A DNA stretch of 5,962 nt from Anaerolineales bacterium (GTDB lineage Bacteria > Chloroflexota > Anaerolineae > Anaerolineales > Villigracilaceae). Both the position numbers and the translations under genes were made by a program. Each line of letters starts with the position of its first letter. Positions within the stretch are counted from its first letter, which is position 1. The stretch is taken from positions 1 through 5,962 of the forward strand of contig JAFGKO010000019.1 of the NCBI GenBank assembly GCA_016928525.1, in the 5' to 3' direction. The notes under the pieces are model-generated. The model worked only from the letters and a program-made list of their open reading frames with translations. It ran no database searches and was not told the DNA's origin. Positions 1 to 5,868 of the stretch are shown here, piece by piece.

Positions 1-479
1 ACAATCGCCCCTTTGGTGGCCTCCATCCGTTCGGCAACAGCCATACTCCAGGAAGCATCAACTACAAAAACCACCAGATTTGCCCGCTTGGTCGCCCGCA
101 TTTTTTCCTGCAAATCCTCTAGGCGGATCGCAAATGCCAGGTCTCCTTTGTCACGTTTGATCTGGTGGGGAGCCGCCGCCCGGATGGTTGCATCAAAGGC
201 AACGTCGGGCGTTTTGCCCCTGGCAGGTCGGGCTTTGATGTATCTTCCACGCTTGCGCTCGGTGTGAGTTCGTGTTCTCCGACCGCTGCGGCGGCGGGTC
301 AGCCTATCCAGCGAGGATTCAAACTGGCGGGTAACCTTGAATTCAGCGCCGGGGTCTATCCTTTGGCCGCCGTCCCACCAGCGGGTGTCCTGGGCAGGGA
401 AAAGGTCCTGCCGGGCGGCCTCAGTAGGCCGCGCATCCGGGGTCTGGTCTTCGGTTTCCTCTAATCCCTCACCCGGTTT
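1..479 (-). CDS. chlD: ChlD/BchD-type chelatase medium subunit, linker and VWA part, -1 frame of the upstream ATPase gene (partial at left edge)
   Basis: This open frame encodes the C-terminal half of a Mg/Co-chelatase medium subunit. In order it has an acidic/proline linker (KKKPGEGLEETEDQTPDA), an arginine-rich segment (RRRSGRRTRTHTERKRGRYIK), the family-typical stretch DVAFDATIRAAAPHQ, then the start of a von Willebrand A domain (NLVVFVVDASWSMAVAERM). The MIDAS metal-binding motif DxSxS is at 45-59. The protein runs off the window edge. In this frame the last upstream stop is at 567-569, and there is no ATG, GTG or TTG codon between it and a TTG at 111-113, just before the VWA domain. Independent initiation therefore looks impossible. 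I infer that it is translated by a -1 shift from the ATPase gene at the A-run 477-485, giving one AAA+-linker-VWA polypeptide as in normal ChlD. The VWA domain would help assemble the ATPase ring with the large catalytic subunit. A homopolymer indel in the read is the alternative. Confidence 0.82.
415..432 (-). other. GC-rich 7-bp hairpin downstream of the frameshift site
   Basis: On the coding strand GCGGCCT and AGGCCGC are perfect complements separated by a 4-nt ACTG loop. It could form in the mRNA inside the linker coding region. It starts about 46 nt after the slippery run, further than typical -1 frameshift stimulators (roughly 5-9 nt), so a direct role is doubtful. The structure itself is plain in the sequence. 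Confidence 0.5.
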
Positions 480-1570
480 TTTTTTACCTGTATCTCCCCG
501 GTAGATATCTCTTCTTCTATTGACGCTTCTGCGTCCGCTTCCTGCTGCGCCATTTCCATCCGTTCCTCAAGCTCATGGGCACTCAGAACGACTTCCTCAA
601 ATGGCCCACGCCGGAAACGGTGCGCCAACGCAAGTTCAGCCGCCAGCAGAATATCCTGCCGCGTTATCGCCGAACGTCCGCCCAGCGCCGCCTGGGCGCG
701 CGCAGCTTTCAATATGACCAGGTCCGCCCTGTGCCCATCCACTTCGAGGCTTGCAGTAAGGTTGGCAATCGTTGCGAGGTCTCTCCGGGTATATTCAACC
801 GAGTCGACGTATTCTCTGGCCTGTTGAATTGTTCCAGATAATTCCCGTTCGCGGGGAAGCCATTTCTCCCGGAATGCAGCCGGGTCCTGTTCAAACTCGA
901 TATGGCGCTCGAGGATCGCGATCCGCGAGCCAGAGTCTTTGATACCCAGCACATCCACACACAGCGCAAACCGGTCAAGCAGTTGTGGGCGAAGGTCGCC
1001 TTCTTCAGGGTTCATTGTGCCAACAAGGATAAACCGCGCCGGGTGCGTGAAACTGATCCCCTCACGCTCAACCACGTTCACGCCCATTGCAGCCGAGTCG
1101 AGCAGGATGTCAACAACATGGTCATCCAGCAGGTTGACCTCGTCCACGTATAAAATGCCTCGATTTGCGCTGGCAAGAACCCCGGCTTCAAAATGGCGTT
1201 CGCCGCGTTGGATCGCCTTTTCAATGTCCAGGGTCCCCACCACGCGGTCTTCTGTTGCGCTCACCGGCAGATCAACAAACAGTGTGCGCCTTATGGCAGT
1301 TGCCAGGGTTTCCCCCCGCGCTGCGCGATCACGACACTCGTCACACCAGGTCGCAGATTGTTCAGGGTCACAGCTAAACCGGCAACCAGCTACCACTTGT
1401 ATGTCAGGCAGCAGGGCAGCCAGCGCTCGCGCAGCGGTACTTTTAGCCGTGCCGCGTTCGCCCCGGATTAAAACTCCCCCAATCTGGGGGGCAACCGCAT
1501 TCAACAGCAGCGCCCGCTTCATGCGATCTTGCCCAACAATTGCAGTAAAAGGATAGACTACTGTAGCCAT
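461..1570 (-). CDS. chlI: ChlI/BchI-like AAA+ ATPase of Mg/Co chelatase (zero-frame product, 369 aa)
   Basis: This is the motor ATPase of a metal chelatase that inserts Mg2+ (chlorophyll) or Co2+ (cobalamin) into a tetrapyrrole together with a ChlH/CobN large subunit. It has the opening PFTAIVGQDRMKRAL, Walker A GERGTAKST (residues 37-45), the family signature ATEDRVVGTLDIEKAI (106-120), Walker B ILYVDEVNLL (139-148), the sensor-type GTMNPEEG (184-191) and the arginine-finger region LRPQLLDRF (193-201). A lid helix bundle follows to about 330. The Cys set C63-x3-C67-x8-C76-x2-C79 lies between Walker A and Walker B. A glutamate-rich tail (332-356) resembles the start of the ChlD acidic linker. 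Translation stops at 461-463, five codons after the slippery A-run, while the VWA domain continues in the -1 frame. The product is thus ChlI-sized although the gene as a whole is chlD-like. The ATG at 1570 has only a weak GAGAAG ribosome site. No phototrophy or B12 gene is visible, so the metal is undecided; cobalt is my preference. Confidence 0.9.
   Translation of the reverse strand: MATVVYPFTAIVGQDRMKRALLLNAVAPQIGGVLIRGERGTAKSTAARALAALLPDIQVVAGCRFSCDPEQSATWCDECRDRAARGETLATAIRRTLFVDLPVSATEDRVVGTLDIEKAIQRGERHFEAGVLASANRGILYVDEVNLLDDHVVDILLDSAAMGVNVVEREGISFTHPARFILVGTMNPEEGDLRPQLLDRFALCVDVLGIKDSGSRIAILERHIEFEQDPAAFREKWLPRERELSGTIQQAREYVDSVEYTRRDLATIANLTASLEVDGHRADLVILKAARAQAALGGRSAITRQDILLAAELALAHRFRRGPFEEVVLSAHELEERMEMAQQEADAEASIEEEISTGEIQVKKNRVRD
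476..499 (-). promoter_or_regulatory. Candidate programmed -1 ribosomal frameshift site (A9 slippery run with upstream SD-like stimulator)
   Basis: On the coding strand the zero-frame codons are GTA AAA AAA AAC, so the heptamer A AAA AAA (485-479) matches the X XXY YYZ pattern for tandem -1 slippage. A shift there joins the ATPase to the VWA frame as ...IQVKKKPGEGLEE. A GGGGAG stretch at 494-499 ends 8 nt before the heptamer and resembles the Shine-Dalgarno stimulator 10 nt upstream of the dnaX A AAA AAG site. The zero-frame stop follows at 461-463. An exact 7-bp GC-rich hairpin lies further downstream (415-432), but about 46 nt is longer than the usual spacing. Whether the site works is inferred. 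Confidence 0.72.
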
Positions 1571-1730: not shown

Positions 1731-2981
1731 CTAGCGGGATACCATTGCCTCCATTTCCTGCCTGATAACAGAGGCAAGTCGCTTGGTTCCCTCTTCGATC
1801 TTGTCTGGTGTCATAAACGAGAAATTGATCCGCATGGTGTTTTCTCCACCACCAAGAGGGTAAAAAGGGCGCCCCGGAACAAATGCGACCTTTTGTTCTA
1901 CTGCCTTATCCAGCAGTTGGGTGGTATCCATTCCCTCAGGAAGTGTGATCCAGAGAAATAACCCACCCTTTGGATGGGTCCACTGAACGTCCACTGGAAG
2001 CAGTTCTTCCAGAAGGGAAAGCATAAGGTCTCTCCGCTCCTTGTAGACCTTCCGGATCGTTCGGACGTGATCGTCCACAAAACCGCCCCGGGCAGTTTCA
2101 TGGGCAACTACCTGTGAAAAGCTCCCTGTATGGAGATCGCTCCCCTGCTTGGCCTGAACAACTCTTGCAATGACTTCTTCTGGCCCGATCATCCAGGCAA
2201 CCCGGAAACCGGGGCACAGCGTTTTAGAGAACGTGCTTAAGTAGATCACATTCCCGGTAACAAAAGGTTCGTCTGCTGCTTTGTTCCGCGCCTGAGCGTC
2301 CAGAACAATCAGCGATGTTTCGTGTTCGCCTTCAAATCGCAGTTGTCCGTAGGGGTCATCCTCAATAATCGGGGTATTGTATCGCTCTGCAAGCTCAATC
2401 AACTCAATGCGCCGCTGATATGACATGGTTCGCCCGGTGGGATTCTGGAAATTTGGCAACGCGTAGATGAATTTGCCCTCGCCCGTTTTAAGAATCTCCT
2501 CAAGCTCTTCAGTCTTCATACCATCATCATCGGTTGGAACAGTTATATAAGCTGCCTGATAAGCATTCCAGGCCTGCAAGGCCCCCAGGTAAGTAGGCTC
2601 TTCTACAATGATCTTATCGCCTGGATCCAGCATAATTTTACCGATCAGGTCCAGCGCTTGCTGAGAGCCAGCAGTCATCACGACATTTTTCAATGAACAG
2701 GGAATACCATAGCGGTCAAAGTGGCGAAGCACCATTTCGCGCAGAGGTTGATAGCCTTCGGTCGTACTGTATTGGAGCGCCAGGTCCCTAAGTTTGGGGT
2801 CGGACAGGATTTTAGTAGTTGCCTCAGCAATTCGTTCTCCAGGGAACAATTCGGGCGCAGGCAGCCCTCCAGCAAAAGAGATAATGTCTGGCTGCTGCGT
2901 TAGCTTCAGCAGCTCTCGGATCGCAGAACTGCTCATTCCCTTGGTTCGCGCAGCATAAAGATCGCCCCATTTGGTTGTCAT
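1731..2981 (-). CDS. PLP-dependent aminotransferase, fold type I, LysN/2-aminoadipate-aromatic type
   Basis: This is a cytosolic class I/II aminotransferase that would move an amino group from an amino acid to a 2-oxo acid using pyridoxal phosphate. Visible marks are IISFAGGLPAPELFP (33-47), YSTTEGYQPLRE (71-82), TAGSQQALDL (103-112), NPTG (180-183), EDDPYGQLR (207-215), the Schiff-base lysine in STFSKT (K253), and MRINFS (383-388), whose arginine should bind the substrate carboxylate. At 416 aa it has full family length. The relatives I recognise are 2-aminoadipate (LysN), aromatic and branched-chain aminotransferases; substrate cannot be fixed from sequence alone. I chose the ATG at 2981 because GGAGAG stands just before it. 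The frame is open to an ATG at 3044, but the extra 21 residues (starting MCHCVGG) look unlike protein sequence of this family. It has its own terminator and no operon partner. Confidence 0.9.
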   Translation of the reverse strand: MTTKWGDLYAARTKGMSSSAIRELLKLTQQPDIISFAGGLPAPELFPGERIAEATTKILSDPKLRDLALQYSTTEGYQPLREMVLRHFDRYGIPCSLKNVVMTAGSQQALDLIGKIMLDPGDKIIVEEPTYLGALQAWNAYQAAYITVPTDDDGMKTEELEEILKTGEGKFIYALPNFQNPTGRTMSYQRRIELIELAERYNTPIIEDDPYGQLRFEGEHETSLIVLDAQARNKAADEPFVTGNVIYLSTFSKTLCPGFRVAWMIGPEEVIARVVQAKQGSDLHTGSFSQVVAHETARGGFVDDHVRTIRKVYKERRDLMLSLLEELLPVDVQWTHPKGGLFLWITLPEGMDTTQLLDKAVEQKVAFVPGRPFYPLGGGENTMRINFSFMTPDKIEEGTKRLASVIRQEMEAMVSR

Positions 2982-3117
2982 ATTTCTCTCCATGTTATGC
3001 ACAAAATACAGCTTAAATTTGGGTCCACCTACACAATGGCACAAGCCAATTTAACTGACCAGTAACCATTGCCATTTCAAACACATGACAGATTTCTTCA
3101 CTCGTTGTGAAGCACAA
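2982..3117. other. Intergenic leader of the aminotransferase gene
   Basis: This 136-bp stretch separates the secreted-protein terminator from the aminotransferase start. Only the ribosome site (GGAGAG, 2986-2991) is clear. I found no convincing paired -35/-10 boxes, although the promoter must lie here if the terminator at 3118-3141 works. Confidence 0.4.
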
Positions 3118-3167: not shown

Positions 3168-4172
3168 CTACACCTCTTCTTCTTCTTCATCCTCTTCTTT
3201 GCGGCGGCGTGCCAGAATCAGCAGCAGCAATATACCCAGACCGATCCCACCTGCTACGCCGGTTGAGATAAATATGATCGAGCCGGTTGTGAGGCCAACC
3301 CGCAGCGGCTCTGCAAGAAGAGTTAATGCACAGCCCTCTTCGCAGGAGACATTGTCGCTGCGCCGGATGGTGTAGCAGATCTGGTCGCCACGCTTCTGTC
3401 CAACCCGCTGGACAATCTGGCACGCCCCTGCTGAGCAGTCCACCATCCCGATCCGGGCCAGATCACCCTGGGCTGCATCGAGCAGCCCATCGTAGATCAG
3501 GAAACAGATCTGTCCAAGCGGCGGCTCACTGCACACGTAGACCTCAAGATCATCCTGTCGTGACGGAATATATCCCTCAACGCCGGTTGTGGAATACGCA
3601 TCCTGCCAGCTCCCAGAGCGGGATTCGTACGCTACCAGGCCACACCCGGTAGGAATATCCAGGGTTGGTGTCGGTGTATAGTCGGGCAGTTCGGTTGGTG
3701 TTGCGGTTCCCTCATCGCCGGGTTCTTCCGTGGTAACTTCGGGGCGGGGGGTGTCCGTTGCTGTTGGAGAGGCTGTTGGTGTAGTGGTCGGTGTTCCCGT
3801 CTCCGTTGCTATCGGGGTTTCTGTGGGCGTATACGTGGCTGTAGGAACTGCCGTGTTGGTTGGGGTTGGCGTGGCACAGTCATCCGGGCAGGTGCTGACA
3901 TTCTCCCCATAGTATTCATCGCAGATGCCATCCCCACAGTAAATCGAACAGTCTGCAGGGCAGCTTACCGCATCTTCGTGATAGGGAAGGTAAAGAGCAG
4001 ATGCCTGGCAAATGCCATCTCCACAGAAGGGCGGCGCCTGCAATAATGCTCCAGAATGATCCTGAGCTGTGTCCTGTGCCAGCGCGGATGCTGTTTGGCC
4101 CAGCGTGGCCACAGCAATAATCACAATAATGGTTATGAGAATGTGATCGAGGTGTTCTCTTAAAATCCCCAT
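3168..4172 (-). CDS. Secreted, membrane-anchored protein with CGDGIC cysteine repeats and Thr/Pro stalk
   Basis: I do not recognise a named function. Numbered from the ATG at 4172, a signal peptide (about 1-32) has a hydrophobic core ILITIIVIIAVATLG and an ALA cleavage site. Two cysteine repeats follow, each CGDGIC...CPxDC (about 50-75 and 79-99). Next come a Thr/Pro-rich stalk (about 100-172), a domain with eight cysteines (about 174-289), one membrane helix (about 293-321), a stop-transfer RRRK, and a cytoplasmic tail of almost pure glutamate. The topology is type I: outside domains on a flexible stalk, anchored at the C-terminus. Such PT-rich stalks and CGDGIC repeats are, in my recollection, frequent in Chloroflexota surface proteins. 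The ATG at 4172 has an excellent AGGAG site 6 nt away. The ATG at 4199 (AGGA, 7 nt) is a real alternative that adds nine residues. It may bind a surface ligand, but that is a guess. Confidence 0.78.
   Translation of the reverse strand: MGILREHLDHILITIIVIIAVATLGQTASALAQDTAQDHSGALLQAPPFCGDGICQASALYLPYHEDAVSCPADCSIYCGDGICDEYYGENVSTCPDDCATPTPTNTAVPTATYTPTETPIATETGTPTTTPTASPTATDTPRPEVTTEEPGDEGTATPTELPDYTPTPTLDIPTGCGLVAYESRSGSWQDAYSTTGVEGYIPSRQDDLEVYVCSEPPLGQICFLIYDGLLDAAQGDLARIGMVDCSAGACQIVQRVGQKRGDQICYTIRRSDNVSCEEGCALTLLAEPLRVGLTTGSIIFISTGVAGGIGLGILLLLILARRRKEEDEEEEEV
3663..3882 (-). repeat. Low-complexity Thr/Pro-coding tract
   Basis: This DNA encodes the stalk of the secreted protein, with repeated ACN/CCN codons giving many TPT, PTA and TET units, plus a short acidic break (EEPGDEG). 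The repeats are degenerate at the DNA level, not exact tandem copies. This suggests selection for the amino acid composition rather than recent expansion. Confidence 0.6.
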
Positions 4173-4227
4173 ACGGTTCTCCTGGGGAGGTATATTCATG
4201 AAATAATCCTGATAAGCACTCTTGGCT

Positions 4228-4263: not shown

Positions 4264-4286
4264 GGGTGTGGCTATTCTGTCTTGGG
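4264..4286 (+). repeat. IS terminal inverted repeat, left (transposase 3' end)
   Basis: It begins GGGTGTGGCTATT at 4264 and is the inverted partner of 5846-5868. It starts only three bases past the transposase stop codon, so the gene reaches almost to the end of the element. Confidence 0.8.
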
Positions 4287-4289
4287 ACA

Positions 4290-5780
4290 TTAAGCCGCCA
4301 TCTCCAGGATAAGCGGTTCAGGAGAACAACCGGGCACCGGTTCGGGGTAAGGTGAGCCATAGCGGGCCACATGGGCTTGCTGGCGACGAAAGTGTTGAAA
4401 ATCAGTCCAATCCCCGTTGAGCGAGACCGCCCGCAGGCGAAGCATCGCGTCAGCTCCCGCCCGTGACCAGTGCATGCCCGATTGTTCGAAGCGGTCTTTG
4501 ACCAGGTGGCGACAAGCGCCTTCAATGACGCCGGTACCGATGGGCCAGCCCTGGGCCAGATAATGCTGATAGTGCATATAAGGCTGGTTACGCCGCAGAT
4601 AGTTGACCACCGTGGTCAAGGTCTTGTACTGAGCGGTTGACAAGGCCGGTGAGGACCGTTGGTAGTCCAGGTGACCCAGCAACTGCTCCAGGTTATCGTC
4701 TAGCACACACTGCAAGGCATCCGTCATCCAGGTGATGCGGTCGGGATGGTTTTCACCCAGGAGGACATTGACCGCATCCCATAGATATTCGACCACATGG
4801 ATCAGGTCCAGCATCAGGGTGAAGTCCGGAAATGCCACCCGGGTTTGTTGTTGCAGGGCCAGCGCCCCATCCGTCAAGGCAATCCGATGGACAATCGACG
4901 TCTGCTGGCGTTGGGCAACCCGCGCAGATAACTGTTCAAGCGCGATGGTTTTGCCTGCGAGAGTACCAAACGTCTGTTTGCCATGAATGGGTGGGCGAAC
5001 TGGAGTCTGTCTTTCTCCTTCAGTCTCCCTTGCGGTTGCCAGTAACGCTTGCATGATATCATCGCTGGTGCGCAGGTAGGGTGCGACCGTGTAGGTGGCG
5101 GTTACCACCGCTTCTTTTTTCGCGGTCTTTTTCTGACCTTTGCTCCGCCGTGCCTGGGGCGGTGGACTATCGCAACGGGTCATTGGAATACCTTTGCCAT
5201 CCACCGTCACCACCAAAATCGTGTCCTCGTCGGGCGTTGCCGGGACTGCCCGTTGGTCATAATAGGCCTCCATATACGCGGCCTGGTCCGCGGCACTCCC
5301 CTGAAGCGAACCCTTGGCAATCGACAGCCCGAAGAACTGTTCAATCAACCCCAAGGTGTTGTCCTGCGGCACCCAGACCTCGATCGCCCCCATCATTTCC
5401 TGCACACAATCCGAATAAATGCGTTCTGGCAGGCTCAGTTCGGTGTCCAGCGGATACCGCCCACCCACGCCCGCGCTCCAATAGTAATGGCGTTTGACCT
5501 CGACTTCACCAAACAACGACACATACTGTCGGGACGGTTGTCCCATGTGTGCATAGCGCCTGCCTTCGACCTCGACTGCTTTGTGCCGCGCTTCGTGTTC
5601 ACTGCACACCGTGAAAAACAACTGCATTAGCATGCGACCCAACATCAATAAGCCGCGCCAGAGATGACGTTCCACTTGATCGGCAGTTAGCTGTGCTTGC
5701 TCGTCGTTCATCACCATGCCCAGCAACGTTTCCACTTCTTCGCGCACGTTTTTTGCTATACTTTCGCTTGTGGGAGACAT
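4290..5780 (-). CDS. ISKra4-family DDE transposase
   Basis: This enzyme cuts and joins the ends of the insertion sequence. Numbered from the ATG at 5780, it has an N-terminal helical region, LFGEVEVKRHYYWS with GGRYPLD (about 89-112), ILVVTVDGKGIPM (188-200), a basic stretch QARRSKGQKKTAKKEAVV, LTDGALAL (302-309), LDLIHVVEYLWDA (324-336) and GTGVIEGACRHLVKDRFEQSGMHW (415-438). Likely catalytic residues are D194 in VDGKG, D304 or D325, and E420 in GVIEGA. The order fits an RNase H-fold DDE enzyme. The frame is intact at 496 aa, so the element may be active. I prefer the start at 5780 (AGGA 8 nt upstream). An ATG at 5804 adds eight residues but lacks a ribosome site. The family call rests on motif recognition. 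Confidence 0.85.
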   Translation of the reverse strand: MSPTSESIAKNVREEVETLLGMVMNDEQAQLTADQVERHLWRGLLMLGRMLMQLFFTVCSEHEARHKAVEVEGRRYAHMGQPSRQYVSLFGEVEVKRHYYWSAGVGGRYPLDTELSLPERIYSDCVQEMMGAIEVWVPQDNTLGLIEQFFGLSIAKGSLQGSAADQAAYMEAYYDQRAVPATPDEDTILVVTVDGKGIPMTRCDSPPPQARRSKGQKKTAKKEAVVTATYTVAPYLRTSDDIMQALLATARETEGERQTPVRPPIHGKQTFGTLAGKTIALEQLSARVAQRQQTSIVHRIALTDGALALQQQTRVAFPDFTLMLDLIHVVEYLWDAVNVLLGENHPDRITWMTDALQCVLDDNLEQLLGHLDYQRSSPALSTAQYKTLTTVVNYLRRNQPYMHYQHYLAQGWPIGTGVIEGACRHLVKDRFEQSGMHWSRAGADAMLRLRAVSLNGDWTDFQHFRRQQAHVARYGSPYPEPVPGCSPEPLILEMAA

Positions 5781-5837
5781 CGTTTCTATCCTGACTGCTA
5801 TCATCCGTTTTCAGGAGATGATTGTCGTTTGTCTCCC
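5772..5837 (-). promoter_or_regulatory. Inverted repeat that could sequester the transposase start codon
   Basis: In the transposase mRNA, GGGAGACA (5830-5837) is perfectly complementary to TGTCTCCC (5772-5779), which begins inside the ATG at 5778-5780. The arms are 50 nt apart. A long read-through transcript could fold this way and block initiation, an arrangement known for several other insertion sequences. This is inference from complementarity alone. Confidence 0.35.
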
Positions 5838-5845
5838 GCGTTTTT

Positions 5846-5868
5846 CCCAATCTAAAATAGCCACACCC
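5846..5868 (-). repeat. IS terminal inverted repeat, right (transposase 5' end)
   Basis: Read on the minus strand it begins GGGTGTGGCTATT, identical to the left end for 13 bases. Four internal mismatches plus one transition follow, then a shared TTGGG. It lies about 66-88 bases before the preferred transposase start. Confidence 0.8.

What the first reader, a model, noticed from the sequence alone, without database searches (positions are those of the whole stretch)
1..569. One chlD gene, two subunits: -1 frameshift at an A9 run joins the ATPase and VWA frames
The AAA+ ATPase ends five codons past a nine-A run. The rest of ChlD (acidic linker, arginine-rich segment, VWA with MIDAS) continues in the -1 frame with strong family similarity and no usable start codon for over 450 bases. 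The junction contains A AAA AAA in the correct phase, with GGGGAG 8 nt upstream, as in dnaX. A shift would give full ChlD and no shift would give a ChlI-sized ATPase. Dual-product chlD genes with programmed frameshifting have been reported in cobalamin producers (as I recall from work by Antonov), so the principle is known. This locus and its likely Chloroflexota setting deserve a check.
Basis: partly seen in the sequence, partly recalled or inferred. Interest (0 to 1): 0.85.

Follow-up and report, generated by a model that had tools for sequence, protein, structure and literature searches.

The report
Frameshifted chlD gene in Chloroflexota bacterium
A single bacterial gene carries a run of nine A's where the reading frame can slip, so it very probably makes both a short motor protein and a longer version with an extra domain; the principle is already known, but relatives suggest that which of the two is the default product has switched repeatedly in evolution while the slippery site stayed.

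Summary
The minus-strand ATPase frame (461-1570, 369 aa) ends five codons after an A9 run (477-485); the rest of ChlD continues in the -1 frame. It is no sequencing slip: of 188 distinct ATPase hits (window included), 125 have the VWA part at -1, all with an A7-A10 run there. The kind is known (PMC3711429; PMC9227772, including Anaerolineae), so the window is a new member of a known kind.

The relatives add three things. (1) Of 47 genes with ATPase and VWA in one frame, 29 keep the run, and all 29 meet a -1 stop within 0-9 codons: dnaX-like inverted polarity, Chloroflexus aurantiacus included. On two trees polarity changed 7 or 10 times, run presence 3 or 2 times. (2) Many A7 members have a stem-loop 4-8 nt downstream; A9-A10 members on average do not. 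(3) 71 of 80 genomes nearest the window show no CobN/ChlH large subunit, so 'chelatase' is unproven there.

Whether ribosome or RNA polymerase slips at this A9 is undecided. The window's own genome is not held.

The parts
461..1570 (-). zero-frame ORF: ChlI-like AAA+ ATPase, 369 aa, ending VKKNRVRD* (short product)
   Evidence: TIGR02442 positions 1-343; TIGR02030 BchI-ChlI 429.5 bits (cut-off 467) against TIGR02031 BchD-ChlD 240.9; PDB ChlI 8osf E 7e-102
477..485 (-). A9 run; in-phase slippery heptamers A_AAA_AAA (485-479) and A_AAA_AAC (482-476)
   Evidence: conserved in phase in relatives
461..463 (-). zero-frame stop TAG, a few codons after the run
   Evidence: in the -1 class (window included) the zero-frame stop is 1-10 codons after the run in 121 of 125
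1..485 (-). -1 frame: acidic linker, Arg-rich segment and start of VWA domain (C-terminal part of long product, runs off the window)
   Evidence: TIGR02442 positions 356-498; no stop in 161 codons; first start codon at index 122; no Pfam match
42..59 (-). DASWSM = MIDAS-type DxSxS motif of the VWA domain
   Evidence: sequence of P0001; motif name recalled
1436..1462 (-). Walker A GERGTAKST
   Evidence: translation; motif name recalled
494..499 (-). GGGGAG, Shine-Dalgarno-like, 8 nt before the run; possible stimulator
   Evidence: duplex energy -8.1, 14th percentile of codon-order shuffles; not clearly a family feature
409..435 (-). GC-rich hairpin about 41 nt after the run (weak candidate stimulator)
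   Evidence: 75-nt fold z -1.36, 20 of 200 shuffles as good; 60-nt fold z -2.66; inconclusive

Best explanation
The window holds a dual-product chlD gene. Translation in the zero frame makes a 369-aa ChlI-like AAA+ ATPase. A fraction of decoding events slips -1 at the A9 run (A_AAA_AAA in phase, second tandem site A_AAA_AAC) and makes a full ChlD (ATPase + acidic linker + VWA). The two proteins share the ATPase and would assemble together, as ChlI with ChlD or CobS with CobT. Shown by sequence: the split, the site, its conservation and the nearby zero-frame stops. Inferred: that slippage happens in the cell, that it is mainly ribosomal, and that the products assemble. In the genomes nearest the window the partner is probably not CobN or ChlH, so the client is unknown.
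For: One profile split across two frames. In one search, 70 of 80 genome loci have the VWA frame at -1, 125 of 188 distinct ATPase hits (window included) do, all 125 with an A7-A10 run, the zero-frame stop within 10 codons in 121 of 125. In-phase heptamer in 154 of 154 genes. All 32 A7 junction runs sit in the one of three registers that allows -1 re-pairing; all 13 A8 runs of the -1 class sit in one of the two registers that do. The 120 best protein homologues listed, the window's own protein among them, are 353-381 aa, mostly ending in a KK-containing tail (the search's length window of 203-645 aa favours short forms). Of 47 one-frame relatives 29 keep the site, all 29 with a -1 stop at 0-9 codons, where about 9.4 are expected within 10 codons; 15 of 15 fourfold third positions before a stop one codon on are T, although T is 8-30% of such sites in the same genes. 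15 A7 genes chosen by eye share a partly covarying stem. Published cassettes of this gene family shift in E. coli: 63% (11 A), 40% (9 A), 10% (7 A) (PMC3711429, passages).
Against: No expression data for the window. The window's downstream fold is not clearly unusual (z -1.36, 20 of 200 shuffles as good; -2.66 in a 60-nt frame). 18 of 47 one-frame relatives have no A7+ run; only 5 of these 18 have an adjacent chlI of about 336-339 aa (L175, L177, L180, L189, L190), so the short form is not always made this way. In the inverted class downstream structure is absent on average (mean z -0.17, 4 of 29 below -2). Relatives share descent, so the counts are not independent. The own genome is not held.
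Confidence: 0.85

Rival explanations
1. Transcriptional slippage: RNA polymerase adds or drops A's at the A9 run, so a mixed mRNA pool is translated without ribosomal shifting.
For: A9-A10 members lack a clear downstream structure on average (mean fold z -0.42 and -0.02). Thermus dnaX uses 9 A's this way (PMC3711429 and PMC5009743, passages).
Against: A7 runs (32 of 154 genes) occur, always in the -1 slip register, and many have a stem-loop about 4-8 nt downstream, covarying in the 15 aligned, which transcription slippage does not need. The 9-A cassette of this gene family gave 40% shifted product in E. coli, though that test does not by itself tell ribosome from polymerase.
Confidence: 0.25
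2. Homopolymer sequencing or assembly error; the real gene has one frame.
For: Single contig; A9; the nearest row by path on the tree (L019) has A10 and one frame.
Against: The same -1 relation at the same place in 124 relatives, including chromosome-sized contigs (L154 on 5,801,598 bases, L167 on 6,346,587). An error of one missing A in the window would only turn it into the inverted form, since the present TAG would become the -1 stop.
Confidence: 0.03
3. Two separate genes: the VWA part is started afresh (reinitiation or coupling) and not fused.
For: Start codons do occur early in many relatives' -1 frame: median first start at codon 38, only 32 of 125 have none in the first 60 codons, and in 37 of the 76 genes where a WW-type motif was found a start precedes it.
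Against: In the window the first start in the -1 frame is 122 codons after the run, inside the region that matches the family profile. The fused form exists in one frame in many relatives (47 of 188).
Confidence: 0.05
4. Decaying pseudogene.
For: The frames are broken and an ISKra4-type insertion lies 2.7 kb away.
Against: The same break recurs across 124 relatives; both pieces still match the family profile and the -1 frame is open for 161 codons. Rates of silent and replacing changes were not measured.
Confidence: 0.02

Closest known systems
Frameshifted chlD (fs-chlD) of Antonov 2013/2020 and Kuznetsov 2022
   Same: -1 shift at a poly-A site between ATPase and VWA, giving ChlI-sized and ChlD products; already reported in Chloroflexota: Herpetosiphon (PMC3711429, passages) and Anaerolineae such as Brevefilum, Anaerolinea, Ornatilinea, Longilinea, Levilinea (PMC9227772, parts 1-3 of 4 read). 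Antonov 2020 itself not held.
   Different: The window is a further, unnamed organism. The one-frame relatives, noted as 'fusions' in PMC3711429 (Chloroflexus aggregans named there), in 29 of 47 cases here keep the slip site with reversed polarity.
E. coli dnaX (and the reversed dnaX described in PMC3711429)
   Same: A_AAA_AAR slip giving two nested products with a short tail after the slip; polarity known to occur both ways (PMC5009743, PMC3711429, passages)
   Different: Unrelated protein (inference from the families named); no consistent SD stimulator; the window has the reversed polarity (shift gives the long form).
Cobalt chelatase CobNST / Mg chelatase ChlIDH
   Same: ATPase nearest to ChlI in the PDB (8osf, 6l8d, 1g8p); TIGR02442 putative cobaltochelatase
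   Different: No large subunit found in 71 of 80 genomes nearest the window; CobB/CbiA matched in 13 of 50, over its cut-off in 8 of 50; function there untested.

Membership tests
fs-chlD (programmed-frameshift chlD) | ATPase in frame 0 and VWA in frame -1 of one chelatase-family protein | tested here: met
fs-chlD (programmed-frameshift chlD) | in-phase poly-A slippery site at the transition, conserved in relatives | tested here: met
fs-chlD (programmed-frameshift chlD) | stimulatory RNA structure downstream | tested here: inconclusive
   window z -1.36 or -2.66; clear on average in A7 relatives only
fs-chlD (programmed-frameshift chlD) | measured production of both proteins | not testable with these tools
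   only other members' cassettes were tested in E. coli (PMC3711429)
fs-chlD (programmed-frameshift chlD) | no separate small-subunit gene in the genome | not testable with these tools
   own genome not held; among 50 relatives' genomes 23 list a separate ChlI-like gene of about 40% identity, so the feature is not general there
CobNST / ChlIDH metal chelatase | large subunit CobN/ChlH (PF02514) in the genome | tested here: inconclusive
   relatives only: found in 9 of 80 genomes; the window's genome could not be tested; completeness of the genomes is not told
CobNST / ChlIDH metal chelatase | small subunit of ChlI type with Walker A | tested here: met
dnaX-type signal | upstream Shine-Dalgarno stimulator | tested here: inconclusive
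   strong in the window, not clearly enriched in the family

The most novel reading that the evidence does not exclude
The slippery site, not the frame break, is the conserved unit. chlD in Chloroflexota has repeatedly switched polarity: in some lineages the shift makes the long form; in others (a group with Chloroflexus aurantiacus, probably its Caur_0117, and a Thermoflexus group) the long form is the default and a -1 slip onto a nearby stop makes a ChlI-sized short form. So some genes annotated as plain full-length chlD, bchD or bchI are hidden dual-product genes. Slip-run length and stem-loop strength look traded off. In most genomes nearest the window the pair works without any CobN/ChlH, as an AAA+/VWA machine with an unknown client.
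Probability: 0.75. Interest if true: 0.65.

Novelty: new member of a known kind. Interest (0 to 1): 0.5.

Why it matters
If the inverted reading holds, a programmed slip can be kept while its output is flipped, and gene finders that look for frame breaks overlook the one-frame dual-product genes (29 of 154 run-bearing genes here). It gives a named target (C. aurantiacus, probably Caur_0117) in which a short ChlI-like product can be looked for. It also sharpens the open question of PMC9227772: what a ChlI/ChlD pair does in bacteria with no large chelatase subunit.

Tried and rejected
Gene neighbourhood as a clue to function: the open frames of 81 loci (80 plus the window) were clustered. Leaving aside a cluster of mostly antisense frames over chlD (28 loci), the largest neighbour cluster, S1-domain-like by eye (name recalled), occurs in 10 loci. 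Only members of the top 20 clusters were looked at by eye; no family search was run on them, and many contigs are short.

SD-like stimulator as a family feature: not clearly enriched.

Run-length/stem trade-off: Spearman 0.54 (p 6e-13) over 154 genes, but on starred branches only 3 independent pairs exist for A7 against A9-A10 (1.8 going along, 0.1 the other way) and 5 for A7-A8 against longer runs (1.7 against 0.5), too few for a test. Reported as a trend.

Covariation of the A7 stem: 15 of the 32 A7 genes, chosen by eye because they align without gaps. Three measures exceed all 500 shuffles, but two do not (pairs changed on both sides 4 against 3.1, reached in 160 of 500; further pair types 7 against 7.0, reached in 359 of 500), and much of the covariation is one difference between two groups of sequences.

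Run kept only because Lys-Lys is wanted: expected 1.33 of 29 from the genes' own codon use. The class was chosen by having the run, so this is a yardstick and not a test.

Strict link between run loss and an adjacent chlI: 5 of 5 one-frame genes with an adjacent chlI lack the run, but 13 others lack it without one, so the link is loose.

[quoted passage not shown] That the gene of L153 is Caur_0117 rests on its position and on those papers' names, not on a sequence comparison.

Rows dropped or relabelled: 11 of 188 ATPase hits without a VWA hit were left out of the frame analysis. L188 is counted among the 47 although its ATPase frame is broken. L172 (doubtful hit) and L188 were left out of the tree; ten further rows (long branches, +1 rows, chlD next to chlI) out of that. 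L121 was counted +1 but reads as -1 at the junction and was entered as -1. In one search L162, which has no run, counted as run-bearing. My note says 18 genes have the -1 stop one codon on; the right number is 16.

Antonov 2020 (10.1093/molbev/msaa081) is not held; I know it only from recall and from its citation, so whether it already describes the reversed form is unchecked. Searches for print.

Full report
WHAT IS THERE. On the minus strand an ORF of 369 codons (461-1570) encodes a ChlI-like AAA+ ATPase. It ends CAG GTA AAA AAA AAC CGG GTG AGG GAT TAG. The -1 frame from the A9 run onward is open to the window's edge (161 codons) and continues the same profile: TIGR02442 1-343 in frame 0, 356-498 in frame -1, each piece alone below the model's whole-protein cut-off. 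By score the ATPase is closer to ChlI (TIGR02030, 429.5 bits, cut-off 467) than to ChlD (TIGR02031, 240.9 bits), and its PDB matches are three ChlI sequences. Pfam finds Mg_chelatase and AAA_lid_2 in the ORF and nothing in the 161-codon piece.

IS IT CONSERVED? A scan of genome contigs with the ATPase returned 80 loci, most titled Chloroflexota or its classes. In 70 of 80 the VWA part lies in frame -1, in 9 in frame 0, in 1 in frame +1. A sample of 400 genomes of the same phylum had matches in 181; with 110 regions from it, 190 loci plus the window gave 188 distinct ATPase hits: 125 with VWA at -1 (window included), 47 at 0, 5 at +1, 11 without VWA. All 125 of the -1 class carry a run of 7-10 A at the junction: A7 27, A8 13, A9 76, A10 9. 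The zero-frame stop follows within 1-10 codons in 121 of 125 and within 18-19 in 4. An in-phase A_AAA_AAA (153) or A_AAA_AAG (1) is present in all 154 run-bearing genes of the -1 and 0 classes. Elsewhere in these genes (313,360 bases, mean G+C 61%) there are 9 runs of A>=7. A homopolymer error in one contig therefore cannot be the source of the pattern; in the window itself one A more would only turn it into the inverted form described next.

THE ONE-FRAME RELATIVES. They exist, but 29 of the 47 keep the A7-A10 run in the same place, and a -1 slip there meets a stop 0-9 codons later in all 29; from the same genes' own -1 frames about 9.4 of 29 would be expected within 10 codons. In 16 genes the stop is one codon on; 15 of these have a fourfold-degenerate codon before it, its third base is T in 15 of 15 although T makes up 8-30% of such sites in those genes, and the amino acids differ (Ala, Pro, Ser, Leu). 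This is what selection for a -1 stop looks like, with the caveat that these genes are related. They are E. coli dnaX-like in layout: the full protein is the default and the slip makes the short one. One is Chloroflexus aurantiacus: the contig length of L153, 5,258,541, equals the published genome size (PMC3150298, passages). The gene lies at about 154 kb; this position and the papers' names make it probably Caur_0117, annotated bchI in PMC3150298 and called BchD-2 in a proteome study that saw it mainly in the lag phase (PMC9316378, passages). No sequence comparison ties the two. Its predicted products, counted from the first possible start, are 696 and 363 aa. Against the need for a short form there: the genome paper names separate cobN, cobS and cobT genes and the proteome paper a second BchI, Caur_1255. 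The nearest named database proteins of this group are 'putative cobaltochelatase' or 'magnesium chelatase' of about 690 aa from Chloroflexus, Oscillochloris and Viridilinea. PMC3711429 (passages) mentions the Chloroflexus aggregans protein as a fusion.

HOW OFTEN DID IT SWITCH? On an ATPase tree of 175 rows, polarity (-1 against frame 0 with run) changes at least 7 times and the presence of the run 3 times (LG+G4; one row without a run, L162, counted there as run-bearing). With a mixture model and 165 rows the counts are 10 and 2. Starred branches force at least 6 changes of the inverted label in both trees. Two inverted groups hold several genomes: 17 rows including C. aurantiacus (support only 68) and four rows including two titled Thermoflexus (support 100); eight others are single rows, some of which could be run-length errors in metagenome-assembled genomes. 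These are quick trees with 59 weak forks each, so the counts are rough; the run is nevertheless more stable than the frame relation in both.

MECHANISM. The phase argument favours the ribosome: all 32 A7 junction runs are in the one register of three that lets both tRNAs re-pair at -1; the 13 A8 runs of the -1 class are in one of the two registers that do. Most A7 members have a predicted stem that begins about 4-8 nt after the run, about 10 nt in the Thermoflexus group. In 15 of the 32 A7 genes, chosen by eye, 86.7% of the cells pair, against at most 52.5% when slid; 11 cells change on both sides against 4.5 in shuffles (0 of 500), while two other measures do not exceed the shuffles. The structure was read from these sequences, so the slid control leans towards it. 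Mean downstream fold z is -2.34 for A7 (n 32), -1.43 for A8 (14), -0.42 for A9 (94), -0.02 for A10 (14); z is below -2 in 31 of 125 of the -1 class and 4 of 29 of the inverted class, whose mean is -0.17. Stretches elsewhere in the A7 genes give -0.29, measured with another kind of shuffle. Shorter runs thus seem to come with stronger stems, but the tree offers too few independent pairs to prove it. In the window (A9) the fold is marginal (z -1.36 over 75 nt; -2.66 over 60 nt) and the GGGGAG is 6th of 125, while SD-like pairing is not clearly enriched in the family. A 9-A cassette of this gene family gave 40% shifting in E. coli (PMC3711429). Transcriptional slippage, known for 9 A's in Thermus dnaX, remains possible for the window.

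FUNCTION. The label cobaltochelatase needs CobN; Mg chelatase needs ChlH. Both belong to PF02514, which is found in 8 of 50 and 1 of 30 genomes behind the 80 loci, so 71 of 80 show none; completeness of these genomes is not told. The 8 with it also list a separate gene 51-58% identical to the window's ATPase, so the junction-run chlD is an extra gene there. CobB/CbiA is matched in 13 of 50 and passes its cut-off in 8 of 50. In 50 genomes of the 55-62%-identity group, in which several have three or four PF02514 copies, 40 have PF02514. PMC9227772 (parts 1-3 of 4 read) had pointed to Brevefilum and Spirochaeta genomes without a large subunit and called the function unclear; the present count makes it common among the genomes nearest the window. 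A separate ChlI-like gene of about 40% identity is listed in 23 of 50 of them. No widely shared gene neighbour was seen.

VERDICT. Real, conserved, and of a known kind. The window is a new member. The repeated polarity reversal in Chloroflexota chlD was not met in the papers found by the searches (listings and the passages cited); Antonov 2020 could not be read.

Noticed in passing
window 4264-5868: ISKra4-family transposase gene (4290-5804, minus; NF033572 248 bits, over its cut-off) between 24-nt imperfect inverted repeats 4264-4287 and 5845-5868 (83%): an apparently intact insertion sequence next to the locus.
   Followed up: partly
window 1731-3044: Aminotransferase-like protein resembling the catalytic half of MocR/PdxR regulators (NF052282 255.5 bits, below its cut-off), on the same strand as chlD and upstream of it.
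   Followed up: no
window 3168-4199: 343-aa protein with two CGDGIC...C..DC cysteine repeats, a Thr/Pro-rich stretch, a C-terminal hydrophobic segment and an acidic tail; no NCBIfam match.
   Followed up: no
L191-L195: A stand-alone ChlI-like ATPase of about 40% identity (381-410 aa in L191 and L193-L195) with no VWA hit nearby; close to a protein starting like type 2 isopentenyl-diphosphate isomerase in 3 of 5 loci, a GtrA-like protein in 4 of 5 and a glycosyltransferase-like protein in 3 of 5 (by eye, names recalled). 23 of 50 genomes list such a match.
   Followed up: partly
L060, L111: Two relatives with the VWA frame at +1 after A8 and A10 runs: run-length errors or a different slip; undecided.
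   Followed up: no
L136 (G284, contig of 4,684,931 bases): The only A_AAA_AAG (E. coli dnaX heptamer) in 154 genes, followed by CCT GAT (-1 TGA); the contig size fits Chloroflexus aggregans DSM 9485 (size recalled).
   Followed up: partly
L129 (G152): A second ATPase of 64% identity, without VWA hit and without A-run, in a genome that also has a frameshifted chlD (L082): a possible duplication of the short form into its own gene.
   Followed up: no
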